A DNA stretch of 64,000 nucleotides from Protonemura montana. Its lineage: Eukaryota > Arthropoda > Insecta > Plecoptera > Nemouridae. Positions 4,326 to 64,000 of the stretch are shown piece by piece. The notes beneath the pieces are model-generated. The model searched no databases. It had not been told where the DNA came from and was given only the letters and a program-made list of their open reading frames with translations. The stretch spans positions 26,193,076 to 26,257,075 of the forward strand of contig OX387604.1 in assembly GCA_947568835.1 (NCBI GenBank), given 5' to 3'. Position numbers and translations under genes: made by a program. Each line of letters starts with the position of its first letter. Position 1 is the first letter of the stretch.

Positions 4326-4493
4326 GTGGTTGATGTGATAGGTACTGGAGGCTGCTGTGAATCCTGGACACTTGTGTGCCAAACAAAATTTCATCACGGC
4401 GACTCGTTAGCAAGCCTGGCCTCGAGCGAAGAGTCGGATGACGGTGGACTTGCTCCTCCACCGTTTAAAAAAGCACGCACTTTGGCCGATACA

Positions 4494-7400
4494 ATGGCTG
4501 CAGCTGCAAATGGCTGTACGCAGCGGAATGGTGTGTCTGATGAGTATCAAGCTACTTCCAGTCAATCCAACGGTGACGAAGGACTCAATTCGATGCTGAG
4601 AAACCAAGGAGGGGGTGACGCACATGATCACGGTGAAAATCCTCCTAAGATAATTGACGAGATGAACCAAGACATTGTTCGTCTAATAGGACAACATCTG
4701 AGAATTGTTGGCCTGGAGTAAGTGTCACCTTTGTCTCTCACTGCTTTGTCTAGTCATGCCAATTTTACTACTTCACATAATTTCATAACAATGAACCTGA
4801 AACCCCAAAATAAATTGTGTGAGATTGCTAAGACTCCTGATTTAAAACGATGAACGTTTCATGAACACAAATGCTCGGCCTGCCCTAATGACCTATTTTT
4901 TTTTAAACTTGTCAGCCGCACAGCGGACTTACTGATGCAGGAGTCGGGATGTCGGCTGGATCATCCTGCAGCAGCCAAGTTCCGAAATCATGTAATGGAT
5001 GGAGAGTGGATCAAGGCTGACCATGATTTATCTGAATTAAAATCTTTGCTGGAAGGCTCATCTGAAAGTCTTCTGGTAAGCAGCCATGATTACTGATCTA
5101 GCAATAAGTAATCTTGGGGAAATTGTTGTGCCCAGGAATTAAAGGTTATTATTTATTTGCAGCAAATGAAATTTCTTCTCCTTGAACAAAAGTATTTGGA
5201 GTATTTGGAAGACAGTCGAGTGTTAGATGCCCTTCACGTGTTGCGAAATGAGTTGACACCTTTGTCGCACAATACCAACCGGGTACATGAGCTAAGTAGC
5301 TACATGATGTGTAGTAGCCGTGAAGAGCTCCAGATCCGGGCATCGTGGCTGGGGAAAGGCTTCAAGTCTCGAAGCTCATTAATGGACAAACTCCAAAGCT
5401 TCCTTCCACCTACCATTATGTTGCCTCCTCGCCGTCTTCATAGCCTGCTGTGCCAAGCAGTAGAACATCAAAAACACCAATGCCCTTATCATAATACCAA
5501 AAACGAAGATGTATTAGAGGATATATCACTTCTTGTTGATCATCATTGCTCAAGGTGACAATGCCATTCAATACTTTGTTTCTCTCCTAGTAATTTTGTC
5601 AAATTTTCTACATTTCTTTATTCTAACCAAATGAACTACAAAAACGCATACCTGAATTTTAACCCGATTTCCAGGGACAACTTTCCTTGTGAGACGGTAC
5701 AAATCCTGAATGACCACTGTGACGAGGTTTGGTTTTGCCGCTTTTCACCAGATGGCCTCAAACTAGCTACGGGATCAAAAGACACAACAGTTGTAATTTG
5801 GGATATTGACCCGGTAAGTAGTGGTTGTCCAGACACCCGTGAATGCAAGACATCAATACAAATTCTAACCACTTAAACGATAGATGTCAAACAATGTCAG
5901 AACTGGAAATTAAATACCAGCAATAAGAGCTAACCTCACTTAACATAGATATATTTTTATTCAGGTGACACTGTATGTGAATTACCGCAAGACTTTAGAA
6001 GGACACTCTTACGGAGTAGCGTACTTGGCATGGAGCCCCGACAGCACCCATCTTATTGCTTGTGGTCCTGAAGATTGTCCCGAACTCTGGATCTGGCACA
6101 TCGAATCCGACGAGTTACGGATCAAAGTGTCTCATTCGCCGGAAGACTCGCTCACCTCGTGCTCGTGGAATCGAGACGGCACGAAGTTTGTTACTGGCGG
6201 TATTCGAGGACAGTTTTACCAATGTGTAAGTTACATGTTGATATTTCTCATGAACTGGGTGCGTTAGCACACTCACAGGGAATAAATTGCTTTCCACAAT
6301 TGAGACAAATGATCCGGTGAATTATTACCCTTGCGGCTGTAGCGCATGCCTGCAAAGTTTCCCCGAGTATTTCTCTCTGGTTTGAGCCTGGAACAAAAGT
6401 ACAAAGTACGTTAGTACTCCCAAAACGCTAATGATAAACTGTCATCGCAAAACATGGTCGTCAAATGACCACTTAACCAACAAAAATGAATGATCCTCAC
6501 CATCAATTTGTGTGTTAAGAAATTTCTTTTCGTTATCTATCCCAGTTACTCGCATCTGAGACTGTTTTACGCTCAGTCAATCTTTATAAATTCTAACCTT
6601 GACGATTTATAAACATAGATAGACATTTTGAGTTGTAACTACTAAATCGTAGATTAAAAGGACAGCCTCAAGTATTAAACAGATGTTTTATCTTCCATCA
6701 CCTTGTGTTACCGGCTCGTTTGCTCAGCAGAACGTTAAACATAAACGCTGGCCCTTTAACCATATCAAACACTCGATGTTACTAGATCATTTAAAGGCTG
6801 CTAGCTTTAAAAAGCTTGGGAAATCACTTTTCCATCTTAATATTTAATATGTAGTGTACTGATATGATTTCAGGATATAGATATTGATGTTGTCATGGTT
6901 TCAGGATATGGATATTGATGTTGTCATGGTTTCAGGATATGGATATTGATGTTGTCATGGTTTCAGGACATGATATTGATGTTGTCATGGTTTCAGGATA
7001 TGGATATTGATGTTGTCATGGTTTCAGGATATGGATATTGATGTTGTCATGGTTTCAGGATATGATATTGATGTTGTCATGGTTTCAGGATATGGATATT
7101 GATGTTGTCATGGTTTCAGGATATAGATATTGATGTTGTCATGGTTTCAGGATATAGATATTGATGTTGTCATGGTTTCAGGATATGAATATTGATGTTG
7201 TCATGGTTTCAGGATATGGATGGAAATGTTCTCGACTCCTGGGAAGGCGTCAGAGTCAACTCACTGTGGTGCCGCAGCGATGGAAAGACTGTCCTAGCCG
7301 CGGACACTCACCATCGAATCCGAGCGTATAACTTCGAAGAACTTTCAGACTTGAATCTGTAAGTTTGCTAACAACTTCTCAGACAATTAAGAACCTATGT

Positions 7401-10927: not shown

Positions 10928-10933
10928 AATAAA
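10928..10933 (+). terminator. Polyadenylation signal of WDR26
   Basis: AATAAA lies about 710 bp after the WDR26 stop codon and is followed by a T-rich run at 10960-10985. This implies a 3'UTR of about 0.73 kb without obvious repeats. Confidence 0.6.
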
Positions 10934-39776: not shown

Positions 39777-41899
39777 TTATTCAGTAGCAAGGTAGAACAG
39801 TCCACGCATTCTGCAAGAAGAAGACAATAATTAGTTTCATGTTGCGGGAATAGTTTTGCATTTTGTTTAGGTCCTAAGTGGTTGAAGGAGCGATTCAATT
39901 ACCCAGAAGAAGCTCCTTCTCCCATGTTTCCGCTTGTGCCGGAGGCGCAGGAACCGGCATTGGCATTGCTCAGTGACGTGCAGGCATGTGCAGGGTAGCG
40001 GCCGTTGCTACGGATTGTCTCACCGAAGAATTCGTATGATCTGCCGTGGCTGCATGAACCTGTGCAATCAAACAAACATATATGAAAGCACACCTGAAAC
40101 TAGAAACAACTTGCTATGCTTTAATATATGAACAGATAGCTTCTAAAATATCCCTTGCAGTCATTTATTAAAAAAGATGATAAAAAAAAAAAAAAAAAAA
40201 AAAATGTGGGCTGTATGGTTCATGACCACCAGAGATAGTATCTAATTTTGTCGAAATTTGGGAAAGAATTAAAAAAACCGATGTGCCTATTTGAATCACT
40301 CGCTAAATATGAAGATGGCGTTGACGGCAGAGGACGCCATCTGTTTTCGTACCTGTCAAGTCAGATCCGCAACCGGGCTGAGAAGACTGTCCTCCATTGG
40401 GGTAGAAGTCAGCGTGTGCTACCGGTTCATTGAACCCAAGCCAACCGCCACAAGTGTGGATGCTGTCTACAAACGCCGCATCTCCAGAATCAAGTCTGTG
40501 CGCGTTATCCTCGTTGGGGAAGAGAGGTAGGGCGGCGTCCAGGCCAGTGACCCTGCCGACAGTTCCTCGCGCGCTGTCACCAGCGATTCCAGACACGTGT
40601 GCTCCCAGGCTGTGCCCGATTAGGTGAGTTTTGGCGTATGAGGACCCTCCATTACTGACAAGATGATCTATGAGGAGTCCGACGTACTGACCGACCGGAT
40701 AGGTATTTGCTTGAGCCTGGTTATAAAGAGGCCCTTGTGCAAGATCTCCCCAATCAACTCCGATCACGTTGTAAGAGCCAACTGCGAGGTAAGCTGAAAC
40801 GAAGATAACAATATTTCAGGTTAGGTCACAGAATGAACTGTTGGAGTGGCCGTTTGTACGATTTCAAGATATAAGGAATTAGATAATATTTCTCACCATT
40901 CTTCAAGTCCTGAATGATAGGACTGTCGATATTGTTTGTGAAGCCGTGGGTCAAGATCTTCGTGGGATTAGCAGAATTAAAGTTAGATGCTTGAAGATTA
41001 GCAACGTCTCCAACGCTAAGCCTGTATCCCGAGTTAGCATTTGATCTGGTGAGAAGAAAGCATTTAATGAGATTGTATTTCAACAACGACAAATGACAAC
41101 GACAATACTCCTCAGTCAACTTCATTTTCTCCTCCTTGGTTTTCTCAAGACCGCTTTACAGTGGGTTTTGTTTTGCTAAGGAAGTCTCCGATTTGCTGAT
41201 AAGATTTTCTTTAGAGTCAAGAACTTCATTCAAATATACCATCAATAACATCTCAAAGAGTTGCAGAGCGAATTGATCACACATATTCTGTTGGGTACCG
41301 GGGTTTGGGTACCGAGTTAAGGTCTTTAGCGACAGTATGCCCTCGGTGAAATGCCCTCGGTGGCCCAATGAAAAAATGGCAGAACCAACAGGACTACATT
41401 ACAGTTTAAACTCAAAGTTTTCACAAAGAGAGATGCATGAATAAATAAGAAAATAATCCCTTTCGAATGAGAATGAAATACCATGTGATTTACTGGTAGA
41501 AAAGCTTTGCAATGGACAAGAAATTACCATCGCATTGAGAAAATACTTACTTGGTGTAGAGCCAGAAACGAACGTCGGTGGCCAAGTCTTTGGGGCTCGT
41601 GTCAATCTTGGGTCCCTTAAGGATCGCCAATGTTGGTGTACCATCATCTTTAGTTAGCATAATCCACTCAAGATCATCGCTGTACTCTTGTCGCTGACCA
41701 TTGGACCAGTGGTAAGCACTGTTCCAGTTGACTAAAAGAAAGACATTATCGTCAGAAAGCCACCAAGATCCAGAACTCAGACTCTGAAATGATAATTCTG
41801 GTTCTTTTTTTCGAAAAAAAAAAAAAAAACCCAAAATAACTTACCCGACGCGCTAACTGCAACTAGTGCAAAAACACAAGCTAACGAAAAGCTCTTCAT
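39777..41899 (-). CDS. Secreted lipase 1 (pancreatic-lipase/PLA1 fold)
   Basis: A predicted secreted serine hydrolase for neutral lipids or phospholipids. Exons are 41845-41899, 41551-41731, 40897-41045, 40353-40793, 39903-40059 and 39777-39810; they join in phase to 338 residues. A signal peptide (MKSFSLACVFALVAVSASG) is encoded by exon 1. The nucleophile is Ser190 in '[15 protein letters not shown]', the acid Asp214 in 'GLDAALPLF', and the base His280 in 'SCSHGRSYEFF'. The loop between the lid cysteines is only about seven residues ('CGSDLTGSC'), against some 20 in pancreatic lipase, which suggests PLA1 or galactolipase-like activity. The protein ends 'GLFYLATE' with no PLAT domain. Lipases 1 and 2 share exons of 149, 157 and 34 nt, so they are close paralogues. 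Substrate is not decided by sequence. Confidence 0.93.
40182..40204 (+). repeat. Poly(A) run
   Basis: A homopolymer of about 23 A (poly-T on the coding strand) in the last-but-one intron of lipase 1. Confidence 0.9.
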
Positions 41900-43491: not shown

Positions 43492-46400
43492 TTATTTCGC
43501 CACCAAATGAAACAATCCCTGCATTCTGGAAAGAAACATAGTATTTTAAAATCCTCAACCTTTAATAATCAGAGATGTACCCAATTCTGCAATGCACCTT
43601 GAAAAGTTTGGTTGGAATGCTTGTTAATTTAGAGGATTAGAGCCGAATCGGCCAGAAGTGGCACATTTTCTTTCAAGGTGTGGATTTTGACTTGTAAAAT
43701 ATCATTTTTTATTACGGGATTGCTTTAGAAACTGGGATGAAACTGAGTAAGAGGAAGAAAGCGGCAAGATTAGCTGCAATCTTCAAAGCATACAGAGGGG
43801 ACAAGGCTTGGCAGGAAATCGGAAACAGATTGGAAACAAACAACTATAAGAGTAGGAAAGACCACTGTCATAAGATTAAGAGGAAAATACTTGGAAGAAG
43901 GATTCAAAACATGGACTCATTGGTGGACAGATATACAGCTGAGTGGAATGATCGGCCTCGGAAGGCATTCGAGAATCTGAAATCATGTCGATTATTTAGA
44001 AAAAGAGTGTGAGAAATAAGTTGGACTTAAGTATTCTCAATCGTTCTGAGATATGCCACCGAAATTGTAAAAATTCAAGGCATTTAATAAAGTTTCATTC
44101 ATTCACGATTCGAGGAATTGGTAGGGCGAACTCACGAAGGGTCGGCGACTGCCCCCATATGCCCGGAAGAGACAGACGCACAGTTTCCTGTCTCAGCGTC
44201 ACTCAAAGTAGCGCACTTGTAAGCCGAGTACTTCGATGCATCGAGTACAGATGCTGCGTAAAACTCGTACGCTTTGCTGTGACTACAGGAGCCTAAGATT
44301 TGGGAGAAATAACAACACGTAAAGCATTGATTACACCGTTGAGTGTGCAGGTTCTAGGTAGAGACAGAACGTTAATGTTAAACCGTTGAGTGTGCAGGTT
44401 CTAGGTAGAGACAGAACGTTAATGTTAAACCGTTGAGTGTGCAGGTTCTAGGTAGAGACAGAACGTTAATGTTAAACCGTTGAGTGTGCAGGTTCTAGGT
44501 AGAGACAGAACGTTGATGTTAAACCGTTGAGTATGCAGGTTCTAGGTAGAGACAGAACGTTAATGTTAAACCGTTGAGTATGCAGGTTCTAGGTAGAGAC
44601 AGAACGTTAATGTTAAACCGTTGAGTGTGCAGGTTCAAACGGTTTAACATTAACGTTCTGTCTCTACCTAGAACCTGCACACTCTACGGTTTAACATTAA
44701 CGTTCTGTCTCTACCTAGAACCTGCACACTCAACGGTTTAACATTAACGTTCTGTCTCTACCTATAACCTGCACACTCAGCGGTTTAACGTTAACGTTCT
44801 GTCTACCTAGAACCAGCACACTCAACGGTTTAACATTAACGTTCTGTCTCTACCTAGAACCTGCACACTCAACGGTTTAACATTAACGCTCTGTCTCTAC
44901 CTAGAACCTACACACTCAACGGTTTAACATTAACGTCCTGCCTCTACCTAGAACCTGCACACTCAACGGTTTAACATTAACATTCTGTCTCTACCTAGAA
45001 CCTGCACACTCAACGGTTTAACATTAACGTTCTGTCTCTACCTAGAACCTGCACACTCAACGGTTTAACATTAACGTTCTGTCTCTACCTAGAACCTGCA
45101 CAATTAACGGTTTAACATTAACGTTCTGTCTCTACCTATAACCTGCACACTCAACGGTTTAACATTAACGTTCTGTCTCTACCTAGAACCTGCACACTCA
45201 ACGGTTTAACATTAACGTTCTGTCTCTACCTATAACCTACACACTCAACGGTTTAACATTAACGTTCTGTCTCTACCTAGAACCTGCACACTCAACGGTT
45301 TAACATTAACGTTCTGTCTCTGTCTCTACCTAGAACCTGCACACTCAACGGTTTAACATTAACGTTCTGTCTCTACCTAGAACCTGCATACTCAACGGTT
45401 TAACATTAACGTTCTGTCTCTACCTACAACCTGCACACTCAACGGTTTAACATTAACGTTCTGTCTCTACCTAGAACCTGCATACTCAACGGTTTAACAT
45501 TAACGTTCTGTCTCTACCTAGAACCTGCATACTCAACGGTTTAACATTAACGTTCTGTCTCTACCTACAACCTGCACACTCAACGGTTTAACATTAACGT
45601 TCTGTCTCTACCTACAACCTGCACACTCAACGGTTTAACATTAACGTTCTGTCTCTACCTAGAACCAGCACACTCAAAGGTTTAACATTAACGTTCTGTC
45701 TCTACCTAGAACCAGCACACTCAACGGTTTAACATTAACGTTCTGTCTCTACCTAGAACCTGCACACTCAACAGTTCAACATTAACGTTCTGTCTCTACC
45801 TAAACAATAGAAACCCTTGCCTCCAACATCAATGATTCCGCACCCCGGTTGGGGTGGTGTCCCTCCGTTGGGATAGAAGTCCGCTTGGCCGATCGGGTCA
45901 AGAAATCCCAAATCCCCGCCGCAAGTATGAATAACGTCAACAAAGTCTGCGTCAGTCGCGTCCAGACGCTCGCTTATCGAATTATCCCCGAAAAGGGGAA
46001 GAGCAGGATCTAGACCTGGAACACACAGCGTATAGTTTAGTCAGATAACCGAACAGTTTGGCGTGTTGGAAACACCGGTTCACGTTAGATCACCGAAGTT
46101 AAGCAACACTGCGCTGAGTCAGGTATTAGATGGGTGACCATCATACACATGACTAGTTCTGTTCGGGAGAGAGGTTAGAGGGATGAAAGTTAGTACAGCA
46201 ACTTCACTCGCCTTGCTTATCAACCTCTCGACAGCATGGATTTGTGGAGGAATCCTGTTGTTCGCGTTGTACCGTCCTTCGGAAGGGACGTTAAGCCGGT
46301 GGTCCCCGTGGTCTTCGACAGGAGTAGGCTACGTGCCGGTACCGGGTTTCCCCTCCTCCCTTCTAGGCTAGGTTAAGTTCATCATCCGCATCATCATCCA

Positions 46401-50480: not shown

Positions 50481-50523
50481 ATAATTAGGATGTGAGAGCT
50501 GTCAGCTGTTTGATTTCTTTCCC

Positions 50524-53500
50524 TCATCCCAGAGCATACGGCGATGAGGTGCTCGTTTGTAGAAAGTAAATACCATTGGCATTTGTGCTGAAAAAAAAGA
50601 GTAAAATCCATTAAAGCCTGTAAAGTGCGTGCTTTAGTGCGTGCTTTAGTGCGTGCTTTAGTGCGTGCTTTAGTGCGTGCTTTAGTGCGTGCTTTAGTGC
50701 GTGCTTTAGTGCGTGCTTTAGTGCGTGCTTTAGTGCGTGCTTTAGTGCGTGCTTTAGTGCGTGCTTTAGTGCGTGCTTTAGTGCGTGCTTTAGTGCGTGC
50801 TTTAGTGCGTGCTGTGCTTTAGTGCGTGCTTTAGTGCGTGCTTTAGTGCGTGCTTTAGTGCGTGCTTTAGTGCGTGCTGTGCTTTAGTGCGTGCTTTAGT
50901 GCGTGCTTTAGTGCGTGCTGTGCTTTAGTGCGTGCTTTAGTGCGTGCTTTAGTGCGTGCTGTGCTTTAGTGCGTGCTTTAGTGCGTGCTGTGCTTTAGTG
51001 CGTGCTTTAGTGCGTGCTTTAGTGCGTGCTTTAGTGCGTGCTTTAGTGCGTGCTTTAGTGCGTGCTTTAGTGCGTGCTTTAGTGCGTGCTTTAGTGCGTG
51101 CTTTAGTGCGTGCTTTAGTGCGTGCTTTAGTGCGTGCTTTAGTGCGTGCTTTAGTGCGTGCTTTAGTGCGTGCTGTGCTTTAGTGCGTGCTTTAGTGCGT
51201 GCTTTAGTGCGTGCTTTAGTGCGTGCTTTAGTGCGTGCTTTAGTGCGTGCTTTAGTGAGTGCTTTAGTGCGTGCTTTAGTGCGTGCTTTAGTGCGTGCTT
51301 TAGTGCGTGCTGTGCTTTAGTGCGTGCTTTAGTGCGTGCTTTAGTGCGTGCTTTAGTGCGTGCTTTAGTGCGTGCTTTAGTGCGTGCTTTAGTGCGTGCT
51401 TTAGTGCGTGCTGTGCTTTAGTGCGTGCTTTAGTGCGTGCTTTAGTGCGTGCTTTAGTGCGTGCTTTAGTGCGTGCTTTAGTGCGTGCTTTAGTGCGTGC
51501 TTTAGTGCGTGCTTTAGTGCGTGCTTTAGTGCGTGCTTTAGTGCGTGCTTTAGTGCGTGCTTTAGTGCGTGCTTTAGTGCGTGCTTTAGTGCGTGCTTTA
51601 GTGCGTGCTGTGCTTTAGTGCGTGCTTTAGTGCGTGCTTTAGTGCGTGCTTTAGTGCGTGCTTTAGTGCGTGCTTTAGTGCGTGCTTTAGTGCGTGCTTT
51701 AGTGCGTGCTGTGCTTTAGTGCGTGCTTTAGTGCGTGCTTTAGTGCGTGCTGTGCTTTAGTGCGTGCTTTAGTGCGTGCTGTGCTTTAGTGCGTGCTTTA
51801 GTGCGTGCTTTAGTGCGTGCTTTAGTGCGTGCTTTAGTGCGTGCTTTAGTGCGTGCTTTAGTGCGTGCTGTGCTTTAGTGCGTGCTTTAGTGCGTGCTTT
51901 AGTGCGTGCTGTGCTTTAGTGCGTGCTGTGCTTTAGTGCGTGCTGTGCTTTAGTGCGTGCTTTAGTGCGTGCTTTAGTGCGTGCTTTAGTGCGTGCTTTA
52001 GTGCGTGCTTTAGTGCGTGCTTTAGTGCGTGCTGTGCTTTAGTGCGTGCTTTAGTGCGTGCTTTAGTGCGTGCTTTAGTGCGTGCTTTAGTGCGTGCTTT
52101 AGTGCGTGCTCCTATAATATCTAAGCAACGGAAACGGTTTTAACAAAAACTATTTCAACTGGGTTTTCAATGCTAAGTGAAGAACAACTAAATTTCCCAA
52201 CGTTTCGTAACTTGTACCTGTTACTTTATCAAGGGTAAGAGCAGTCCTGACAATTTTCCGATAACAAAAGAACCACACAAAATTATAACAATTACCAAGT
52301 TCAAGCTTCCTAAATGCATCTAAATAAAATAATCATGGTAAAACATTAGTTTTTTGAGTTATTAACCCTGATTATTTTATTTAGATGCATTTAGGAAGCT
52401 TGAACTTGGTAATTGTTATAATTTTGTGTGGTTCTTTTGTTATCGGAAAATTGTCAGGACTGCTCTTACCCTTGATAAAGTAACAGGTACAAGTTACAAA
52501 ACGTTGGGAAATTTAGTTGTTCTTCACTTAGCATTTAAAACCCATTTGAAATAGTTTTTGTTAAAACTAGTGCTAAGTTTACATCAAGTAGACATGAGTC
52601 TAAGAACCATGATAACGGGAACAGTTACTTGTATTTGAACGAAGTCTCGGAATCTCCCATAAAAACAGTGGCGAGCGGTTGCTTGGCACAAGTTCCACTT
52701 TGAAATTGTTTCCACGACGAACATTTGTGAGCTGCGAAGCCGCGAGACGATGTAATCGACTCAGCGAAGAGCTCGTGTGCCCTGCTATGACTGCACGCCT
52801 CTGTAAATTTATTATTATTATTATTATTATTACTTGTTGTGCTTAACATAGCACTGTTTTGACATCTGGTCATGCGGCACTGGTCTAATGGCGTCGGTGA
52901 ATGAGTGGATGATGATGAGGATGATGATGAACCTATCCTACCCTAGAAGGGAGGAGAGGAAACCCGGTGCCGGCACGTAGCCTACTCCTGTTGAAGACCA
53001 AGGGGACCACCGGCTTAACGTCCCTTCCGAAGGACGGTACAACGCGAACAACAGGATTCGTCCACAAATCCATGCTGTCGAGAGGTTGTTAAGCAAGGCG
53101 AGTGAAGTTGCTGTACTAACTTTCATACCTCCAACCTCTCTCCCGAACAGAACTGGTCATGTGTATGATGGTCGCCCACCCAATACCTGACCCAGCGCAG
53201 TGTAGCTTAACTTAAATCCCTCCAACCTCTCTCCCGAACAGAACTGGTCATTTTTATGATGGTCACCCATCCAATACCTGACTCAGCGCAGTGTTGCTTA
53301 ACTTTCATCCCTCTAACCTCTCTCCCGAACAGAACTGGGCATGTGTATGATGGTCACCCATCCAATACCTGACTCAGCGCAGTGTTGCTTAACTTCGGTG
53401 ATCTAATGTGAACCGGTGTTTCCAACACGTCAAACCATTCGGTTTCTGAAGATGAAGCAGATACAAATCTACATTATGTTGGACTTCTCTACATCGGACC

Positions 53501-56500
53501 GAATGGTTTGGCGTGCTGGAAACACCGGTTCTCGTTCGATCACCAAAGTTAAGCAACACTGCGCTGAGTCAGGTATTGGATGGGTGACCATCATACACAT
53601 GACCAGTTCTGTTCGGGAGAGAGGTTGGAGGGATGAAAGTTAAGCAACACTGCGCTGGGTCAGGTATTGGATGCGTGACAATCATACACATGACCAGTTC
53701 TGTTCGGGAGAGAGGTTGGAGGGATGAAAGTTAAGCAACACTTTGCTGAGTCAGGTATTGGATGGGTGACCATCATACACATGACCAGTTCTGTTCGGGA
53801 GAGAGGTTGGAGGGATGAAAGTTAGTTCAACAACTTCACTCGCCTTGCTTATCAACCTCTCGACAGCATGGATTTGTGGAGGAATCCTGCTGTTCGCGTT
53901 GTACCGTCCTTCGGAAGGGACGTTAAGCCGGTGGTCTCCTTGGTCTTCGACAGGAGTAGGCTACGTACCGGCACCGGGTTTCCCCTCCTTCCTTCTAGGC
54001 TAGGCTAGGTTCATCATCATCATCATCATCATCCACTCATTCACCGACGCCATTAGACCAGTGCCGCATGGCCAGATGTCAAAACAGTGCGTCGTTAAAC
54101 ACTACAAAATATAAAAGCATCTGTAGATGAATCAGGTACAAATCTACCATCTGTAAACACATACCATTAAACATTGGAAGACAGCAGCATCCTGGCTGTG
54201 CCGATATACCTCCGTTGGGGTAGAAGTCAACGTGACCGAGGGGGGCAGAGTAGCCCAAAACACCCCCACACGTGTGAATGATGTCCACGAAGTTGGCGTC
54301 CGTTTTGTCGAGGTGTCGATCCTCGGCTGTTTGTGCGAATCCTGGACTCGCAGGATCAAGTCCTGGAAATACATGGTCCATGCTTTGCTAATCAAGTACC
54401 GATAGAGGCGTGTAGGGTAATGTTTTTCAACGATAATTATAATACAAACCAGGACATTAATACCAGACTATGAAATGATCCACCTAAAAAAGCCCCAAGG
54501 GCTTTCTTTTTCATCTTAAAAAGTTATTTTCCAGCAGCATATCTTCGCATTATGTCAATTATTTATGTATTTTATTTTTATCAACACTATAACCGTCTCA
54601 AAAATTGATGTCCTAAACGGGGACTCGAACCCCGATCTCCACCTATCGCGGATGTTGCTCTAACCCATTGAGCTACTTGAACACTTGCTTTATGAGACGA
54701 CTTTAGTGATATGTGATTGGTATGAGTGTCTTTTGGCTTTAATTTTTGAGACGGTTATAGTGTTGATAATAATAAAATACCCCGCACATTGCAAGCGTTT
54801 AAATTGAAATTAGATTTCATCTCAATTATGTATTTGTTTGCTACTTGCCTGGGTATTGGATGGGTGACCATCATACACATGACCAGTTCTGTTAGGGAGA
54901 GAGGTTGGAGGGATAAAAGTTATGCAACACTGCGCTGAGTCAGGTATTGCATGGGTGACCATCATACACATGACCAGTTCTGTTCGGGAGAGAGGTTGGA
55001 GGGATGAAAGTTAAGCAACACTGCGCTGAGTCAGGTATTGGATGGGTGACCATCATACACATGACCAGTTCTGTTCGGGAGAGAGGTTGGAGGGATGAAA
55101 GTTAAGCAACACTGCGCTGGGTCAGGTATTGAATGGGTGACCATCATACACATGACCAGTTCTGTTCGGGAGAGAGGTTGGAGGGATGAAAGTTAAGCAA
55201 CACTGCGCTGAGTCAGGTATTGGATGGGTGACCATTATACACATGACCAGTTCTGTTCGGGAGAGAGGTAAGAGGGATGAAAGCTAAGCAACACTGCGCT
55301 GAGTCAGGTATTGGATGGGTGACCATTATACACATGACCAGTTCTGTTCGGGAGAGAGGTAAGAGGGATGAAAGTTAAGCAACACTGTGCTGAGTTAGGT
55401 ATTGTATGGGTGACTATCATACACATGACCAGTTCTGTTCGGGAGAGAGGTTGGAGGGATGAAAGTTAAGCAACACTGTGCTGAGTTAGGTATTGGATGG
55501 GTGACCATCATACACATGACCAGTTCTGTTCGGGAGAGAGGTTGGAGGGATGAAAGTTAGTACAGCAACTTCACTCGCCTTGCTTATCAACCTCTCGACA
55601 GCATGGATTTGTGGAGGAATCCTGTTGTTCGCGTTGTACCGTCCTTCGGAAGGGACGTTAAGCCGGTGGTCCCCTTGGTCTTCTTGGTCTGCTACGTACC
55701 GGCACCGGGTTTCCCCTCCTCCCTTCTAGGCTAGGTTAGGTTCATCGTCATCCTCATCATCATCCACTCATTCACCGACGCCATTAGACCAGAGCCGCAT
55801 GGCCAGATGTCAAAACAGTGCATCGTTAAACACCACAAATAATAATAATAATAAGCTACTTGACTGAGTACACTGAGTAAAGTACCAACCTGTTATCCTT
55901 GCTAGTTTCTTCGGAGCAAGACTTGCCCCTGCAAAGCCCGCTACATGAGCTCCCAAACTATGACCAACGATATGTATTTGATCGAGTCTTGCTTTCCCCT
56001 CCCTCACAAGTAACTGAATCATTGCGCCGATATGATTTCCAACTGGCAACGTATTTGACACCGGCCCGAGGTAGAAGACGCTGGCAGACAGCTCACCCCA
56101 ATCCACCACAATCACGTTCAAGTCCCCAGACTCCAGGTATGCTAGCGTAGACCAGAAAAAAATTGCATTACATTTCATTTAATGGATTGCCACTGGCTTC
56201 AGGTAATTATCAATATAGATGACCCCTATACTGGCAAAGATCTTTGAAGGCTTTGAGTTATCGCCTGGGTTTTCGAAGGATCAATAAGATTAAGCGATCC
56301 TGGCAGCCGACAATTCAGTAGAATACAAAAAGCATTACAAGGTATCGACTACCTGACGCCGTGTTTTGTACCACAAGTCTAATTAATTAATTTACCAATT
56401 AATATTTGTTTTCAACTCTATCAATGTATGAGTTTGGTATTAAAGCTCTAGCATTGGATGGTGGGTAAAACGGTTCTAAAACCTAGATATGGTACAGGAT

Positions 56501-57591
56501 TTTAAAGCAGGTTTCACTTTCTGTGCCAGTTTTTCTGGGAGGAAACTTACGAGTTGGCCACAAATTTAAGTTAGAAACTCAAAATCGTCATATTTTTTTA
56601 TGTCTTTCTAGATAAAGTGGGAATTAAAATGTCTTACCTGATTTAATGCTCAGCATTGCTTTGCTCATTCCGTGAGATTTCCATCCATGTACGACAAACT
56701 TGGTGCGATGTTCTGGGTTGAATTTGCTCGCTTTAAGGAGACGGCCATTGTCCGCGTGAATCGTTTCACCAGTTTCAGGATTCTGTCTTCACGAATACAC
56801 ATCAGTGTCAAAATATGCATCTCCAAGATCGTTAAATGCAACCTTAAATATCACCCTGCCAATACTGACCACAAACCCTGTCACTATAACCCTACTTCCA
56901 TCACACCGAACGGTTTGGCGTGTTGGAAACACCGGTTTTCGTGAGATCACCTAAGTTAAGTAACACTGCGCTGTGTCAGGCATTGGAAAGGTGACCACCG
57001 AACGGTTTGTCGTGTTGGAAACACCGGTCCTCGTCAGATCACCGAAGTTAAGCAACACTGCGCTGAGTCAGGTATTGGAAAGGTGACCGCCGAACGGTTT
57101 GGCGTGTTGGAAACACCGGTTCTCGTGAGATCACCGAAGTTAAGCAACACTGCGCTGAGTCAGGTATTGGAAAGGTGACCATCATACACATGACCAGTTC
57201 TGTTTGGGATATAGGTTTGGGGTTACATAAACTTCACTCGCCTTGCTTATCAACCTCTCGACAGCATGGATTTGTGGAGGAATCCTGTAATTCCCTTTGT
57301 ACCATCCTTTAGACGGGACGTTAAGCCGGTGGTCACCTTAGTGCTCTTTGAAAAACGATGAAATAATGAATTCATCTTTACTTACTTGGTGTAGAGTTGG
57401 AATGATATGTAATTCTCGTAGTTAAGTCTTGTTACTTGACCAGTTGAGTTGAGGTAGACCCTGTGTGGGATCCCCTCCCCGTCTGGGAAAAAGATCCACG
57501 AAGACCCTTCACCTGGTAGCTCCAGAGTATCACCCGAGCGAAGTAAAACCACAAAACAACCAAACAAACAACAAGCCCCCAAGTGCATCAT
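50524..57591 (-). CDS. Secreted lipase 3 (pancreatic-lipase/PLA1 fold)
   Basis: Third cluster member. Exons are 57386-57591, 56638-56786, 55890-56141, 54165-54362, 52629-52800 and 50524-50587, in phase, giving 346 residues. Signal peptide and mature N-terminus share exon 1 ([17 protein letters not shown]), whereas lipases 1, 2 and 4 split them over two exons. Triad: Ser180 in '[15 protein letters not shown]', Asp205 in 'GLDPASPGF', His273 in '[14 protein letters not shown]'. Exon 2 is 149 nt, as in lipases 1 and 2. The last exon, identified by phase and the ending '[16 protein letters not shown]', lies isolated between two 12 bp satellites. The exon 2 acceptor (56787-56788, GAAG) is weak; it was chosen for phase and the 149 nt length over the nearby CAG. 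Introns 2, 4 and 5 contain SINEs. Confidence 0.9.
50622..52110 (+). repeat. 12-bp satellite (GTGCGTGCTTTA), about 1.5 kb
   Basis: About 120 units of GTGCGTGCTTTA with scattered short units that give GTGCGTGCTGTGCTTTA, in the last intron of lipase 3. It ends 34 bp from the last exon. Long open frames across it are artefacts of a stop-free period of 12. Confidence 0.97.
52138..52566. mobile_element. Fold-back element, 198-bp inverted arms
   Basis: Arms 52138-52335 and 52369-52566 are inverted copies at about 97 percent identity around a 33 bp spacer. They contain no ORF. The ends read TTTTAACAAAAAC. It lies in the last intron of lipase 3, next to the 12 bp satellite. It is either a fold-back MITE or a recent inverted duplication. 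No target duplication was found. Confidence 0.85.
52806..53443 (-). mobile_element. 5S-derived SINE with three heads
   Basis: Minus-strand copy (sense to the gene) in lipase 3 intron 4, the intron between exons 54165-54362 and 52629-52800. Three tandem 5S-derived heads lie at about 53165-53440. Its AATAAT tail runs into the exon acceptor ('AAATTTACAG' at 52801-52810). Confidence 0.92.
53495..54112 (+). mobile_element. 5S-derived SINE with three heads
   Basis: Plus-strand copy head-to-head with the previous SINE, 50 bp apart, in the same lipase 3 intron. Heads start near 53545, 53638 and 53731, with a 93 bp period. Confidence 0.92.
54575..54832. mobile_element. tRNA-derived element, second copy
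   Basis: Positions 54610-54682 read on the minus strand as a tRNA-like sequence with A box 'TAGCTCAATGG' and a perfect 5 bp T-arm around 'TTCGAGT'. Inverted arms ('ATAACCGTCTCAAAAATT', and its inverse at about 54741-54765) flank it. Position 33 of the anticodon loop is not T, so it is unlikely to be a working tRNA gene. Confidence 0.65.
54850..55853 (+). mobile_element. 5S-derived SINE with eight heads
   Basis: Eight tandem head units of about 93 bp (the first truncated), then one body and an AATAATAATAATAA tail. It lies in lipase 3 between exons 55890-56141 and 54165-54362; its tail ends about 30 bp from the exon 3 donor. Units are over 90 percent alike. Confidence 0.95.
56901..57345 (+). 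mobile_element. 5S-derived SINE with three heads of a second junction type
   Basis: Three tandem units of about 92 bp, each starting 'CCGAACGGTTTG' and ending 'GGAAAGGTGACC', joined at that point, then a diverged and truncated body. It lies in lipase 3 intron 1, ending about 35 bp from the exon 1 donor. Confidence 0.9.
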
Positions 57592-57989
57592 TGTCCTAGG
57601 CTTGCGTAAAACAATTGGTCACTAATCTCAGTCAACACTCCGTTTTATTCCATATGAAAATGTCGACGTTTAATGAGTATCAATCTTATAAACATGTAGA
57701 TTAATTAAAAATGATAATGTGTCACCTACTTTTCCCTGTCAACCGTGCGTTTACATAAGTATAGGGTGTAGATACTCGGCAATGGGACGTTGCAAGAGGA
57801 ATATTTCTGATAAAACTCACGAAGAAATTGCAACGCGCATGTTTCTAACGAAGGTTAAATAAGTACGCTCCTAGGAATAATTTCGCTCTTTTGTTTATAT
57901 CCGTGACCAGCCTTAAAATATCTTCTATCAAGAAACAATCAGCCCAGAGAATTGCCGAATCTTGTATGTATGTTTGCAACATTTTTATT

Positions 57990-58395
57990 TAGCAGATGCT
58001 ATTTTGAAATACATTTTTTCACATTAGCTGTTGTACTCTCAAATAGGATTTTGATAATAACATAAAATTAAATTATAATCATAAACATTAAATCATACAG
58101 TTTCATTCTGCTCTTCTAAATTTTTTTCCCCCTATCTTCTATCAACATTTTCTTTAACCTTAACTGAAACATTTCTATGTCTAATTTTCTCACATCTCTT
58201 GGGAAACAATTGTAATCTTTCACTCCTTTAAATGCTATTCTACTTCTATATTTATTACCTTTAAAATATTCAACAATGATTGCTCCCCTTCTTTGAACTT
58301 CTGCTATTTTCTCTGTTACTCACATTCATATTTATTCTTTCTGACATATATTCAGGCATCACTCCTTTCTTTGTTGTGCTTGTTGTTCAATGTTG
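57990..58395 (-). mobile_element. CR1/L2-like LINE, ORF2 C-terminus relic
   Basis: The minus strand reads 'MPEYMSERINMNVSNRENSR', then in shifted frames 'IAFKGVKDYNCFPRDVRKLD' and 'MFQLRLKKMLIE'. These correspond to 'LPxYLSE', 'F..G...WN.LP..VR' and the basic tail at the end of LINE ORF2. At least one stop and one frameshift interrupt it, so it is inactive. Confidence 0.7.
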
Positions 58396-58680
58396 AGCTT
58401 GTCAAATTAATTGCACTCTGTGTATTCGACTGCTTTGGTCATGTACTTTCATGAACCCATCAGCACGTCCCGTAATTTTAGCAATTGCTTTGGCCAAACA
58501 AATCAGTCGGTTTGAAAAAGCGACGGTTGAGTTTGTGGGAAATAGCACGTGTAAGATAATACACAATGATATTGGCTTCGTATCGACGCGGCAAAACATG
58601 AATCGAGCGTTTTGTTCGTCGTTGGAAGGCTGTGAGCACGCACGAGTGCGTGTCAATACACCTTGACAAGCGCTCGCACA

Positions 58681-58860
58681 ATAATAATAATAATAATTTT
58701 ATTGTCTTTAAATTGATCAAATACATGATATTAAGACAGTCAGTGTTCTATTCTAATTTATAAATACATATAATATTAATTCAAATATACATATTTACAT
58801 AATGCTAAATGTTTAAAAACTGGTCAATGGAATAAAACATGTTTCAATTAGTTGCATTGT
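58681..58860 (-). mobile_element. LINE 3'-end fragment with ATT tail
   Basis: On the minus strand it ends 'GACTGTCTTAATATC', 'AAAGACAATAAAA' and (TTA)n, the same 3' end as the fragment nested in the SINE at 7597-7744. Confidence 0.55.
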
Positions 58861-58945
58861 TTAATCAATCAGCTGGTTTCTCCTCGCATGGGCCGCCTCA
58901 CATAGGCCCCCTCGCATGGCTCCCGCATGGGCTCTGCATGGGCCG

Positions 58946-61900
58946 CTAGCCCAGTGCATAGGGGGGCTTGTCTCCAGTTGTCACCAAGTACACCCCCAAA
59001 GTCCTGTAGAAGACGGGAAACATGATTCAAAGTCCTGTAGAAGACGGGGAACATGAGGCAAAGTCCTGTAGAAGACGGGGAACATGAGGCAAAGTCCTGT
59101 AGAAGACGGGGAACATGATTCAAAGTCCTGTAGAAGACGGGGAACATGATTCAAAGTCCTGTAGAAGACGGGGAACATGATTCAAAGTCCTGTAGAAGAC
59201 GGGGAACATGATTCAAAGTCCTGTAGAAGACGGGGAACATGAGGCAAAGTCCTGTAGAAGACGGGGAACATGATTCAAAGTCCTGTAGAAGACGGGGAAC
59301 ATGAGGCAAAGTCCTGTAGAAGACGGGGAACATGAGGCAAAGTCCTGTAGAAGACGGGGAACATGATTCAAAGTCCTGTAGAAGACGGGGAACATGAGGC
59401 AAAGTCCTGTAGAAGACGGGGAACATGATTCAAAGTCCTGTAGAAGACGGGGAACATGAGGCAAAGTCCTGTAGAAGACGGGGAACATGATTCAAAGTCC
59501 TGTAGAAGACGGGGAACATGAGGCAAAGTCCTGTAGAAGACGGGGAACATGAGGCAAAGTCCTGTAGAAGACGGGGAATATGAGGCAAAGTCCTGTAGAA
59601 GACGGGGAACATGATTCAAAGTCCTGTAGAAGACGGGGAACATGAGGCAAAGTCCTGTAGAAGACGGGGAACATGATTCAAAGTCCTGTAGAAGACGGGG
59701 AACATGAGGCAAAGTCCTGTAGAAGACGGGGAACATGATTCAAAGTCCTGTAGAAGACGGGGAACATGATTCAAAGTCCTGTAGAAGACGGGGAACATGA
59801 TTCAAAGTCCTGTAGAAGACGGGGAACATGATTCAAAGTCCTGTAGAAGACGGGGAACATGAGGCAAAGTCCTGTAGAAGACGGGGAACATGAGGCAAAG
59901 TCCTGATTTCGTGCTGTATTCTCAATTACCCTGGACTGCACTTTTCGCCCATCGGCACGCGCTGCAGTTTAGTGTTCTCATTTTCAGGGCACCAGCCAAG
60001 AACGTATTGATAGTAATTAGGACAGGAAATTCCCCAGAATCCTTTCGGTGATCCAATAGACTCAGCGAAGTAGACCGGCGCCAGTAGATGGCTGCACAGG
60101 GATGGATCTGTAACACAAACAACGTCCAATATTATGCATTTATGCATTTATGCATTTATACAAATGCATTTATGCATTTTTATTTAGCATTTATAAGATC
60201 TCGAGCCTTCACACATCCGGGATACAGCCACTTCTAGTGGCACCACGATTTCAAATTTTAGCTTTTTCCAAAATAACATCGAGTTTATTTTCCAGAGTAC
60301 ATGTTTATCTGTCACGTTGGCCCCTTCTGGATTGACACACTTGTACCGTCAGGAAGGGCAGTAAGTTTCCCGATAGATACAGAAACTGCGTGCAAAAGAT
60401 GATAAGAAATTAAGCTTCCTTACTTTTATGTCCCTTGCAACCTCTTTGAGTTGTTCCACCATTGACATAGAAATCTGCGTGGCCGGTCGACTCGACTTTG
60501 CCCAAAATGCCAACGTTCGTGTGTATGACGTCCACGAAACGAGCGTCTCCGGAATCTAGTTTCCAAGTGTCTGCCATGGTCTTGAATAGAGGGAGAGCTG
60601 GGTCCAGTCCTGGTGACAGATCACGTGCAACCTTCAAGTTTCTGGTAACTCGGCATTGGTCATTGAATTCTATCATTTATTATGCAGGCAACATAAGCTT
60701 GCGCTACATGGAGCTAGCGCTGTAATAGTTTAAATGAGTGGCAATGAAAAGATGCTCAAATTTCTGCTAAAGCTGAAACCATAGAAACGGCTACCAAGCG
60801 GTGGGAGATATTTAAAAAATTGCCTTATGACGATGTGTACCTGTGTGTGTGGGAGGACGATTTAGTTAGGTATCACTGCGCTGAGTCAGGTATTGGATGG
60901 GTGACCATCATACACATGACCAGTTCTGTTTGGGAGAGAGGTTGGAGGGATAAAAGTTAAGCAACACTGCGCTGAGTCAGGTATTGGATGTGTGACCATC
61001 ATACACATGACCAGTTCTGTTCGGGAGAGAGGTTGGAGGGATGAAAGTTAAGCAACACTGCGCTGGGGTCAGGTATTGGATGGGTGACCATCATACACAT
61101 GACCAGTTCTGTTCGGGAGAGAGGTTGGAGGGATGAAATTTAGTACAGCAACTTCACTCGCCTTGCTTATCAACCTCTCGACAGCATGGATTTGTGGAGG
61201 AATCCTGTTGTTCGCGTTGTACCGTCCTTCGGAAGGGACGTTAAGCCGGTGGTCCCTTTGGTGCTATTCCGGCTAGGTGGTCTCCTAGCCCCCTGGTCCC
61301 CTATTCCGGCTGGTCCCCGGCTAGAATAGGGCCTAGGGGGCCTAGTTGGCACCGGGTTTCCCCTCCTCCCTTCTAGGCTAGGTTAGGTTTATCATCTACT
61401 CATTCACCGACGCCATTAGATCAGTGCCGCATGGCCAGAAGTCAAGACAGTGCGTCGTTAAACACCACAAATAAATAAATAAATAAGATTGGTATATGCC
61501 GGGTCGCACCTGTGATCCTCGCCAACTTAAATCCTTTTCGAGCGTAGAGTTTCTCGCTGGTGTAGCCGGCTACGTGGGCCCCCAAACTGAATCCCACAAC
61601 ATGAGTCTCACTGGAGCGAAATGTCGGGTACTGAAACTCCATGGCATCGAGGAACTCAGCTATGCATTTGCCCACATGCCAAGTGTTAATCACGGCTACT
61701 GGATAGCAAGGAGTGTTGCTTAGAAGCGTCCAGTCCACCACGATAACGTTCACATCCCGGTCTTGCTGCTCCAAGTAAGCTGCAAATATTCTGGGGCGTT
61801 ATTTAGGCCATTTTCGATCCACGGTGGGAGCAAAAATGAGCCGGTGCGTGACTCAGTAAGTCACTCCGACGGCTCTGTGAACCACGCGGAACAAAACCAG

Positions 61901-62492
61901 AAGTAGACAATGTTTTCATAACATGCACATTCTGGAAAGTAAGTCGCTAGATAAGCTAGCAACTGTTCGTTGGTTTACTGTATAGCATGTACTGGGTAAC
62001 CATGGTGAACGTAACTCACCCGTTTTGATTTTCCCAGTCGGGTTATACATGTCAAACGCTCCTCCGTACCCGTGAACAATAATTTTCATGGGCAGCGAAG
62101 CGTGAAATCCCTCCCCAGCGTCTGGCGCAGTGACATTCAAACGGATGAACGTCTCCTTGTGCTGTCTAGTTGGTTTGAATACACAATCATTGAACAAATA
62201 ATTTAACACTTTTTCCTAATTAAGCTTTCAAATAGTCTACTTACTTGTTGTACAATTTAAATTGGATAAATTCCGAGTCACATTTGGCAAATAACTGTAA
62301 CACACATGGACCAATCGTGTTCTTTTCTTGCTGTTGAATCACGATTTGAGCACCGCCTGTCAAAAAACACACGCACAATCGCATCCGTGTAAAGATTTAC
62401 TCCAAATACATATGTCACATCACATTTCACTTATTTTTCAAACCCTGGAACTCACCTGGCGCAAAAGCTTGAAAGAAAATCAAGTACCACAT
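58946..62492 (-). CDS. Secreted lipase 4 (pancreatic-lipase/PLA1 fold, GFSLG elbow)
   Basis: Fourth cluster member. Exons are 62456-62492, 62245-62356, 62020-62165, 61510-61779, 60424-60609, 59930-60107 and 58946-59003, in phase, giving 328 residues. Signal peptide: MWYLIFFQAFA. Triad: Ser163 in '[15 protein letters not shown]', where Phe replaces the usual His of GHSLG, Asp191 in 'GLDPALPLF', and His257 in 'SLCSHLLAPVYFAES'. The C-terminus reads 'GVYLVTTGDKPPYALG'. It is the most divergent of the four, with extra cysteines in the last domain ('GISCPNYYQYVLGWCPEN'). Intron 4 carries a multi-headed SINE. The last intron is almost entirely a 31 bp array of its own acceptor. The triad is intact, so an active enzyme is likely. 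Confidence 0.9.
59004..59905 (-). repeat. 31-bp minisatellite of the lipase 4 last-exon acceptor
   Basis: About 29 units of exactly 31 bp fill the last intron of lipase 4 apart from 25 bp next to the donor. On the minus strand each reads 'GACTTTGNNTCATG' and then 'TTCCCCGTCTTCTACAG'. The final unit's CAG is the acceptor, and GACTTTG is the start of the last exon (59003). Two versions, GCCTC and GAATC, alternate irregularly. Confidence 0.96.
60868..61486 (+). mobile_element. 5S-derived SINE with three heads and a rearranged body
   Basis: Plus-strand copy in lipase 4 intron 4, with heads near 60873, 60960 and 61047. Within the body (about 61262-61345) the usual sequence is replaced by GC-rich repeats of CCGGCTAG and GGTCCCC. 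The AATAAATAAATAA tail ends about 20 bp from the exon 4 donor. Confidence 0.9.
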
Positions 62493-64000
62493 GACCGTTG
62501 CTGGTGCTCGAACGCAGAGCAAGTGCCGTTGACGGTTGCGTCGAGAGCATTGCAAGTCGGTGCTGGGTGCTGGGTGCTCGTTGTCTGGTATTAACACTAA
62601 GTATAAGCAATGGGGTCAATCGGCACAGTCTTGCACACTTTTCTCATCATATTTAGCATTGACTTACTGGACTGAAATTAATAATTCATGTCGCATACAA
62701 ACACGTCCGAGGCACGAGCCTAGTTTCCTTCCTATGTGACTTATCGTTTCAATCAACGAATGCCACTTACCAATATTTGGACTGAATTATTTGGGGAAGG
62801 TCACTTACCAATAGTTGGACTGAATTATTTGGGGAATGCCACTTACCAAAAGTTAGACTGAATTATTTGGGGAATGGCACTTACCAAAAGTTGGACTGAA
62901 TTATTTGGGTAAGGTCACTTACCAATAGTTGGACTGAATTATTTGGGGAAGGTCACTTACCAATAGTTGGACTGAATTATTTGGGGAAGACCACTTACCA
63001 GTAGTTGGACTGAATTATTTGGGTAAGGTCACTTACCAATAGTTGGACTGAATTATTTGGGGAAGGTCACTTACCAATAGTTGGACTGAATTATTTGGGG
63101 AAGACCACTTACCAGTAGTTGGACTGAATTATTTGGGGAACGTAACTTACTGAACAAAGCAAGAAATCTGTCAGATACTTCTTTGCAAATCAACGAAAAC
63201 TTAATACTTTAAACTTCCGGTAGTAGGAACGAGGCAAGTTTTGGGAAAAATATGAGATTCATGAGACTTAACATTGTGGGAGAAAAGACATGAAGTAGCA
63301 ACCTATGAACCTGCGGAACCTGCGGAACCTAGGTTTACAATCTCAATCCGGATTTGCGCTCCATCTTAAAGACTTGTTGGTGCTGTCTTATCCCGTGAGG
63401 TCGACTTGCCGCCTGTCAGATAAGATGGTCGGGTCGCCTACCTACAGGGGCAATAACTCCCATCAGCTATCCGCTATGAGTTGGAGTTGGAGTTGGGATA
63501 ATATTTTCACGGTGCCCTCGTGTTGCATTCATGCATCATCCATGAGTTAAAGTTAAACAACATGATTCTTATTTTTCTTGTCAGGTATCGAATGGAAACA
63601 ATCACTTAAGTTACCTCTACAAGGAATTTAGGTAAACAGAAACAAACGGAGTTCACTTCATTCCGCCACCATTTTATTGTAAATTTTTTCTTCGGTATAT
63701 AATAATAAAAATAAGTATTGTGAATTTAAAATGAAAACATTACGCCCAAGCTACTCTTGACAGAAACTAAAAATATCAGATCTCTAATTGATTACGTACA
63801 ACAAACATATCCAAAAATGTACCAAATTCTTACAATTCACTTGGTAAAATATAAGAAGAAAACACATTATTGGACAGCAACAATAGTTCACTTCAGTTAA
63901 ATTGAAATATGTCAGAGACTCCGTCGTGTCGGACAAATTTCCATTGATTAGTTATCCATTTTGTATGTCAAGTTGAGACATATTTCACTCTGGATTTGTC
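62493..64000. other. Region upstream of lipase 4
   Basis: This should contain the lipase 4 promoter, but no TATA box is evident. A 38 bp array occupies 62761-63145. From 63150 to the window end I recognise nothing, and the final 400 bp are AT-rich. Confidence 0.4.
62761..63145 (-). repeat. 38-bp minisatellite with a donor-like site in each unit
   Basis: Ten units of 38 bp. On the minus strand each reads 'CAGTCCAACTATTGGTAAGT' and so contains a consensus-like 5' splice site (TTG, then GTAAGTG). It lies about 270 bp upstream of the lipase 4 start codon. Confidence 0.93.

What the first reader, a model, noticed from the sequence alone, without database searches (positions are those of the whole stretch)
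59004..59929. Last intron of lipase 4 is a 29-fold tandem copy of its own 3' splice site
The 31 bp unit (pyrimidine tract, TTCTACAG, then the exon bases GACTTTG) is the junction between intron and last exon. Apart from 25 bp beside the donor, the whole 926 bp intron is this array. The spliceosome must choose among about 29 near-identical acceptors. Duplication of an intron-exon boundary into a minisatellite is rarely noted and is a possible way for an intron to grow.
Basis: partly seen in the sequence, partly recalled or inferred. Interest (0 to 1): 0.82.

Follow-up and report, generated by a model that had tools for sequence, protein, structure and literature searches.

The report
Splice acceptor copied 29 times over
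In an arthropod-type genome, the short stretch where a lipase gene's last intron meets its last exon has been copied head to tail until the intron is almost nothing but 29 near-identical splice acceptors; an unrelated gene in the same window shows the same build, so the cell must pick the right acceptor among look-alikes.

Summary
Confirmed. On the minus strand, 29 head-to-tail 31-bp units plus a 10-nt stub fill 902 of 926 bp of the last intron of a lipase gene (59004-59929), and the array runs 7 bp into the last exon. Each unit is pyrimidine tract + TTCTACAG + exon bases GACTTTG. Homology, not motif strength, fixes the junction: four tandem lipases share a phase-2 intron there (92, 610, 2041, 926 bp), and two relatives unsplit at this site run straight through. 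Only acceptor 29 of 29 gives the native C-terminus.

Added here: a second case in the window. A WDR26-like gene has 12 acceptors in an array (6864-7221, 30-31 bp units) whose standard unit carries nine coding bases (Asp-Met-Asp; Asp-Leu-Asp in the solved WDR26); only the twelfth keeps the frame.

The kind is known: amphioxus "mirages". The mitochondrial gene order here is arthropod-type; my searches found no arthropod mirage in print. Best reading: a minisatellite that grew on a 3' splice site, mostly tolerated, with the 3'-most site presumably used. No RNA was available, so acceptor choice is inferred; against it, the acceptor is of modest strength and the last unit lacks a consensus branch point.

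The parts
58997..59905 (-). 31-bp minisatellite, 29 full units + 10-nt stub; unit in gene sense CAGGACTTTG[CC/AA]TCATGTTCCCCGTCTTCTA
   Evidence: TRF, direct parse, column variation
59004..59929 (-). last intron (intron 6) of lipase 4, 926 bp, phase 2, 97.4% array
   Evidence: gene model, phase and length, fraction
59906..59929 (-). 24 nt of non-array intron beside the donor (GTAATTGAGAATACAGCACGAAAT)
58946..59003 (-). last exon of lipase 4 (58 bp, ends TAG); its first 7 bases GACTTTG are in every unit
   Evidence: tail aligned to unsplit relatives L016, L017
59930..60107 (-). exon 6 of lipase 4, ends CCAGG before donor GTAATTG
58946..62492 (-). lipase 4 gene: exons 62492-62456, 62356-62245, 62165-62020, 61779-61510, 60609-60424, 60107-59930, 59003-58946; 328 aa
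   Evidence: Pfam Lipase E 9.4e-49 over residues 43-297; the first exon was placed by reading the sequence, not by homology
39811..39902 (-). lipase 1 last intron, 92 bp, phase 2, donor GG|GTAATTGA as in lipase 4
43526..44135 (-). lipase 2 last intron, 610 bp, phase 2
50588..52628 (-). lipase 3 last intron, 2041 bp, phase 2, 73% a 12-bp array without exon bases
6864..7221 (+). second junction array: 12 TTTCAG|GA acceptors, spacing 31 (nine times) or 30 (twice); standard unit contains exon bases GATATGGAT
6226..7212 (+). intron of the WDR26-like gene, 987 bp, donor TGT|GTAAGT, 35% array
7213..7358 (+). WDR26-like exon ([12 protein letters not shown]...), starts at the residue matching WDR26 458
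   Evidence: E 6.1e-21

Best explanation
A 31-bp segment straddling the 3' end of the last intron and the first 7 bases of the last exon of a lipase gene was tandemly duplicated, then expanded and homogenised as minisatellites are, to 29 copies, so that a short intron (58 bp without the 28 extra copies) became one of 926 bp. It is a 'mirage' minisatellite, probably tolerated rather than functional. Splicing most likely joins the donor at 59929 to the 3'-most acceptor (exon start 59003), because only that copy is followed by real exon sequence, so exon definition should favour it. SHOWN: the array, its exon bases, the gene model by homology, the single acceptor compatible with the native protein, a second case of the same build. 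INFERRED: direction and mechanism of the duplication, neutrality, and which acceptor is used (I would give that last step about 0.6 on its own).
For: 29 junction copies at exact 31-bp spacing; array found only at this locus (lower bound); phase-2 last intron shared by four tandem lipases with lengths 92/610/2041/926; unsplit relatives L016 and L017 align through the junction; only acceptor 29 of 29 gives the native tail; without 28 units the intron would be 58 bp, against 79 bp for the shortest other intron of the gene; no good donor in the unit (at most 4 of 9 consensus positions), so upstream copies cannot easily become cassette exons; independent junction array in the WDR26-like gene, where only acceptor 12 of 12 keeps the frame and whose unit is also found only at its locus (lower bound); reported precedent that amphioxus mirages do not disturb regular splicing.
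Against: No transcript data. The lipase acceptor is not strong: score 4.0 (acceptor 29: 4.9) on a crude matrix from 13 acceptors of this cluster, below 12 (acceptor 29: 11) of those 13, matched by 12% of 7432 AG sites, 14th of 28 array rows. The last unit is of AA type, which lacks a YTNAY branch-point motif, so a branch point may have to come from an upstream unit with another AG in between. The last exon is short and its direct match to the lipase 3 last exon is weak (E 1.3); the Pfam match stops at residue 297, before that exon. No species comparison was possible, so 'ancestor short' rests on paralogues.
Confidence: 0.8

Rival explanations
1. Isoform bank: several of the 29 acceptors are used, giving lipases with alternative C-termini. 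Upstream acceptors replace the 19-residue native tail by other tails of 23 to 116 residues, most of them wholly repeat-encoded.
For: All acceptors have near-identical cores; the units are open in frames that give tails without an immediate stop; stops in a last exon would not be expected to trigger nonsense-mediated decay (general knowledge).
Against: 28 of 28 upstream acceptors lose the native end; 14 of the 28 give the same short 23-residue kind of tail or nearly so; in the WDR26-like case 11 of 11 upstream acceptors hit a stop, so the build itself does not look designed for isoforms.
Confidence: 0.08
2. Array first: an intronic minisatellite supplied a new acceptor, and the first bases of the last exon derive from the array.
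For: Several introns here are filled by arrays without exon bases, so arrays do arise inside introns; the residues at the lipase junction are variable among paralogues.
Against: Exon length from the junction to the conserved strand is unchanged in lipases 1, 2 and 4; in the WDR26-like gene the exon bases encode D-M-D aligned with D-L-D, with no gap at the junction.
Confidence: 0.08
3. The lipase gene is decaying and the array marks lost splicing.
For: 28 of 29 acceptors give an aberrant end; intron retention would end the protein right after CSPG (the tblastn row reads a stop there).
Against: All seven exons are open and the GFSLG, GLDPA and CSH motifs are present (motif roles recalled); the same build occurs in a conserved WDR26-like gene.
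Confidence: 0.05
4. Assembly artefact (false expansion of one unit).
For: No reads could be inspected; one amphioxus mirage was reported as aberrantly assembled in the draft.
Against: 34 contigs for 258 Mb suggests long reads, which would span 0.9 kb (inference); interspersed CC/AA units and two singletons argue against simple stutter.
Confidence: 0.03

Closest known systems
'Mirage' minisatellites of amphioxus (Adh3, globins BflGb6 and BflGb9, PGBD5, troponin C); PMC3087553 (abstract, passages, one section read), PMC3902484 (one passage read)
   Same: Tandem units spanning an intron/exon boundary, with splice signals and exon bases in the units; Adh3 units of 10-72 bp include this size; BflGb6 also duplicates a 3' boundary.
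   Different: Host here has an arthropod-type mitochondrial gene order; 29 and 12 acceptors against 3 and 6 repeat units reported for BflGb6; the lipase intron is 97% array. The original Adh3 paper was not held.
Internal tandem repeats at exon-intron boundaries in human segmental duplications (PMC2812944, passages read)
   Same: Tandem repeats located at exon-intron boundaries that can change splicing.
   Different: There repeats retained in exons of recent paralogues become alternative introns; here an existing intron is lengthened by copies of its own acceptor.
[quoted passage not shown]
   Same: Tandem duplication of a segment that carries splice signals, in an arthropod.
   Different: That route duplicates exonic AG/GY sequence and creates a new intron; here the intron position is shared with three paralogues and the unit has no good donor.
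Ordinary intronic minisatellites
   Same: Same kind of array turnover; three other introns in this window are 73-96% array.
   Different: Those arrays hold no exon bases; these two do.

Membership tests
Mirage minisatellite | Tandem array of near-identical units | tested here: met
   Lipase 29 units at 31 bp; WDR26-like 12 acceptors at 30-31 bp
Mirage minisatellite | Unit spans an intron/exon boundary and includes exon bases | tested here: met
   Lipase 7 exon bases; WDR26-like 9 exon bases in the standard unit
Mirage minisatellite | Regular splicing is not disturbed | not testable with these tools
   No RNA data; only protein homology says which acceptor is compatible with the native product
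Mirage minisatellite | Copy-number instability between alleles or cells | not testable with these tools
   One haploid assembly only; low variation between units fits recent turnover but does not show it
Intron gain by proto-splice-site duplication | Intron is at a novel position | tested here: not met
   Phase-2 last intron shared by four tandem lipases
Intron gain by proto-splice-site duplication | Duplicated unit carries both acceptor and donor (AG/GY) | tested here: not met
   No GT in either unit matches more than 4 of 9 donor consensus positions
Introner or other dispersed element | Same sequence at many loci | tested here: not met
   Each unit found only at its own locus (the tool calls its counts lower bounds)

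The most novel reading that the evidence does not exclude
In this arthropod-type lineage, minisatellites born on 3' splice sites are a common, ongoing way for introns to grow: many genes may carry banks of near-identical acceptors, and the spliceosome ignores all but the 3'-most by exon definition, which would make this genome a natural experiment in acceptor choice.
Probability: 0.3. Interest if true: 0.75.

Novelty: new member of a known kind. Interest (0 to 1): 0.6.

Why it matters
Duplicating an acceptor in a minigene is a classic way to ask how the spliceosome picks a 3' splice site (recalled). Here nature offers sets of 29 and 12 acceptors with near-identical cores in two unrelated genes, each with a simple read-out: one acceptor of the set gives the proper protein. 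It is also a concrete route by which an intron can grow, and if RNA and relatives bear it out it takes a phenomenon whose named examples I found only in lancelets to an arthropod-type genome. Gene annotation and short-read RNA mapping will tend to fail at such loci.

Tried and rejected
Rejected: a dispersed repeat (lower bounds); a coding repeat on the plus strand (longest open stretch 25 codons); a stable RNA structure (z -0.70; 5 of 20 shuffles fold at least as well); higher-order periodicity of the CC/AA map (no clear peak, no significance test made); recursive splicing through a donor in the unit (no good donor).

Led nowhere: naming the species from assembly size; the original Adh3 mirage paper (not held); a motif-strength argument (the lipase acceptor is unremarkable); searches for minisatellites and alternative splicing (passages of PMC4039745, about other repeats). 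Rfam on the window at gathering thresholds gave 8 5S-like and 2 tRNA-like hits.

Limits of the survey: 60 lipase/trypsin exon loci (200,895 bases; 61 TRF rows with period 9 or more) and 8 Cpn60_TCP1 loci. Only L066 and L076 were inspected base by base; the rest by TRF coordinates against the Pfam match, so junction arrays elsewhere in a locus could be missed. The 30 P450 and 30 kinase loci asked for were not given. Of the window, Pfam was run in three minus frames or fewer over 52001-64000 (two frames), in six frames over about 3001-12002 and 26001-35002; the rest of the window was not scanned for genes except by tblastn with the lipase protein. I claim no enrichment of arrays at junctions.

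'No arthropod mirage in print' rests, all in one open-access library, with several lists capped (33: 25 of 56 shown; 36: 20 of 476; 42: 10 of 18; 74: 12 of 59; 75: 12 of 32).

Full report
OBSERVATION. The array is real and as described. TRF gives 58997-59905, period 31, 29.3 copies. On the minus strand, 29 copies of the junction CTACAG|GACTTTG occur with all 28 spacings equal to 31. The 29 units differ at four columns only: a linked CC/AA dinucleotide (14 CC, 15 AA units) and two singletons, one of them in the last unit before the exon. The intron 59929-59004 is 926 bp, of which 902 bp are array; 24 nt at the donor are not. A DNA search of the window's own 258-Mb genome found the unit only here: 12 matches, all in this array (a lower bound by the tool's own statement).

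GENE MODEL. Seven exons on the minus strand (62492 to 58946) give a 328-aa protein that matches Pfam Lipase over residues 43-297, E 9.4e-49, and solved pancreatic-type lipases. The last exon is only 58 bp and lies beyond the Pfam match, so its identity needs care. Two lines support it. First, the three other lipase genes in the window (numbered 1 to 3 by position) have a last intron in the same phase 2 before a short last exon: 92 bp in lipase 1, 610 bp in lipase 2, 2041 bp in lipase 3, 926 bp in lipase 4. Lipases 1, 2 and 4 have the same two residues' distance from the junction codon to the G-[LV]-[FY] strand, and lipases 1 and 4 share the donor GG|GTAATTGA. Second, two relatives whose genes run across this position without an intron (L016, L017) align through the junction to the last residue. 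Weaker: a direct match to the lipase 3 last exon has E 1.3, and an ATTAAA hexamer lies 80 nt past the stop, a motif only.

WHAT THE ACCEPTORS WOULD DO. Splicing exon 6 to each of the 29 acceptors in turn, only acceptor 29 gives the native 19-residue end. The other 28 give tails of 23 to 116 residues, mostly encoded by the repeat alone; the last few run into the exon out of frame. The reason is that 31 is not a multiple of 3 and AA units carry TGA in one frame. CC units hold CTCAT with its A 20 nt before the exon; AA units have no YTNAY motif there, and the unit before acceptor 29 is of AA type. The unit has no good donor (at most 4 of 9 consensus positions). The acceptor is not strong: on a crude matrix from 13 acceptors of this lipase cluster it scores 4.0 (acceptor 29: 4.9), below 12 (acceptor 29: 11) of those 13; 12% of 7432 AG sites in the window reach 4.0, and it ranks 14th of 28 array rows. 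The case therefore rests on homology and on exon bases in the unit, not on motif strength.

A SECOND CASE IN THE WINDOW. The array 6864-7221 (period 31, 11.6 copies) has 12 TTTCAG|GA junctions on the plus strand, nine spacings of 31 and two of 30. It ends inside exon 7213-7358 of a gene whose translated exons match the solved chain 8qbn_7, WD repeat-containing protein 26 (human, recalled), in pieces from residue 141 to 635 of 645. The upstream exon ends at residue 457 and the exon after the array starts at 458, without a gap; the exon alone matches at E 6.1e-21. The donor TGT|GTAAGT lies at 6225/6226. The nine exon bases of the standard unit, GATATGGAT, encode Asp-Met-Asp, aligned with Asp-Leu-Asp; several units carry changes in them. 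Of the 12 acceptors only the twelfth keeps the frame; the other 11 run into stops. This array's acceptor has the highest score of the 28 array rows (8.7), and its unit has TTGAT with the A 18 nt before the exon. It too was found only at its own locus (4 matches, lower bound). Because this exon is conserved, the direction from exon to array is clearer here than in the lipase.

HOW COMMON IS IT? Introns packed with minisatellites that do not reach the exon are frequent nearby: lipase 2 intron 5 (96% array), lipase 3 intron 6 (73%), a MOB-like intron (89%) (MOB). In 60 lipase/trypsin exon loci (200,895 bases) there were 61 TRF rows with period 9 or more; three overlap the Pfam match, one inside an exon (L048) and two rows of one array at an exon start (L066); none was seen to hold acceptor plus exon bases. 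The L066 array ends just short of the acceptor. Among 8 Cpn60_TCP1 loci, L076 has a 31-bp x 12.9 array that stops three bases short of the AG. So arrays close to acceptors recur, strict junction arrays are two in this window and none in the sampled loci, and I claim no enrichment. More DNA could not be fetched.

ORGANISM. The 15,885-bp contig C34 is mitochondrial. Pfam identifies its reading frames; read from one strand their order is (-)ND5, (-)ND4, ND6, CYTB, (-)ND1, a gap, ND2, COX1, COX2, ATP6, COX3. ND6 scores below Pfam's cut-off, and ND2 was named by its place. I recall this as the arthropod ground pattern. The species was not identified.

COMPARISON. Arrays of this build were named mirages in amphioxus. 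PMC3087553 (abstract, passages and one section read) reports duplications of 3' or 5' boundaries in globin genes, cites Adh3 with 10-72 bp units, reports 6 and 3 repeat units in two haplotypes of BflGb6, and says RT-PCR suggests that regular splicing is not disturbed. PMC3902484 (one passage read) adds PGBD5 and cites troponin C. Human segmental duplications have tandem repeats at exon-intron boundaries (PMC2812944, passages); Drosophila has intron gain through tandem duplication of proto-splice sites (PMC2891723, passages), a different route. I file both arrays as mirages in structure: the structural features were tested and met; transcript behaviour and copy-number instability could not be tested. 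What appears new, within the limits of my searches, is the arthropod-type host, the copy number, and an intron that is 97% copies of its own acceptor.

MECHANISM. Most likely a 31-bp tandem duplication across the 3' splice site, then slippage or unequal exchange with homogenisation. Removing 28 units would leave a 58-bp intron, somewhat below the shortest other intron of the gene (79 bp). As long as the 3'-most copy works, upstream copies may cost little. Exon definition (a downstream donor in the WDR26-like gene, a terminal exon in the lipase) and exon sequence present only after the last copy would favour the last acceptor; this step is inference, and the missing branch-point consensus in the last lipase unit counts against an easy version of it.

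Noticed in passing
window 44331-45802: Lipase 2 intron 5 is 96% a 47-bp minisatellite in two opposite orientations (24.7 copies one way, 6.5 the other), a long inverted repeat in the pre-mRNA; the exon model needs a GC donor (GGAG|GCAAGG).
   Followed up: partly
window 62764-63150: 38-bp x 10.2 array upstream of the lipase 4 start codon; units carry a donor-like TTTGGTAAGTG or TATTGGTAAGTG. Could be a duplicated 5' splice site of an unseen 5' exon, or chance.
   Followed up: no
window 33227-33690: 9-bp x 51.6 array fills 89% of an intron of a MOB-like gene.
   Followed up: partly
window 49663-50481 and 50624-52110: Two different 12-bp arrays (68.8 and 117.8 copies) on either side of the last exon of lipase 3.
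   Followed up: partly
L076 2407-2804 and 3130-3852: Cpn60_TCP1 gene: 31-bp x 12.9 array ending three bases before an acceptor AG, and a 73-bp x 9.9 array starting shortly after the next donor.
   Followed up: partly
L066 1752-1809: 11-bp array forms the tract just upstream of a trypsin exon acceptor, without the AG.
   Followed up: yes
window, eight places (e.g. 46048-46168): 5S rRNA-like elements, many with tandem 90-92 bp repeats of an internal part; they look like SINE heads (recalled).
   Followed up: no
G000 contig C4 near 5.39-5.78 Mb (L009, L011): Nuclear copies of mitochondrial COX1; one has the same length and score as the mitochondrial gene.
   Followed up: no
L016, L017: Two lipase relatives whose coding match runs unsplit over the positions of several lipase 4 introns; possibly retrocopies.
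   Followed up: no
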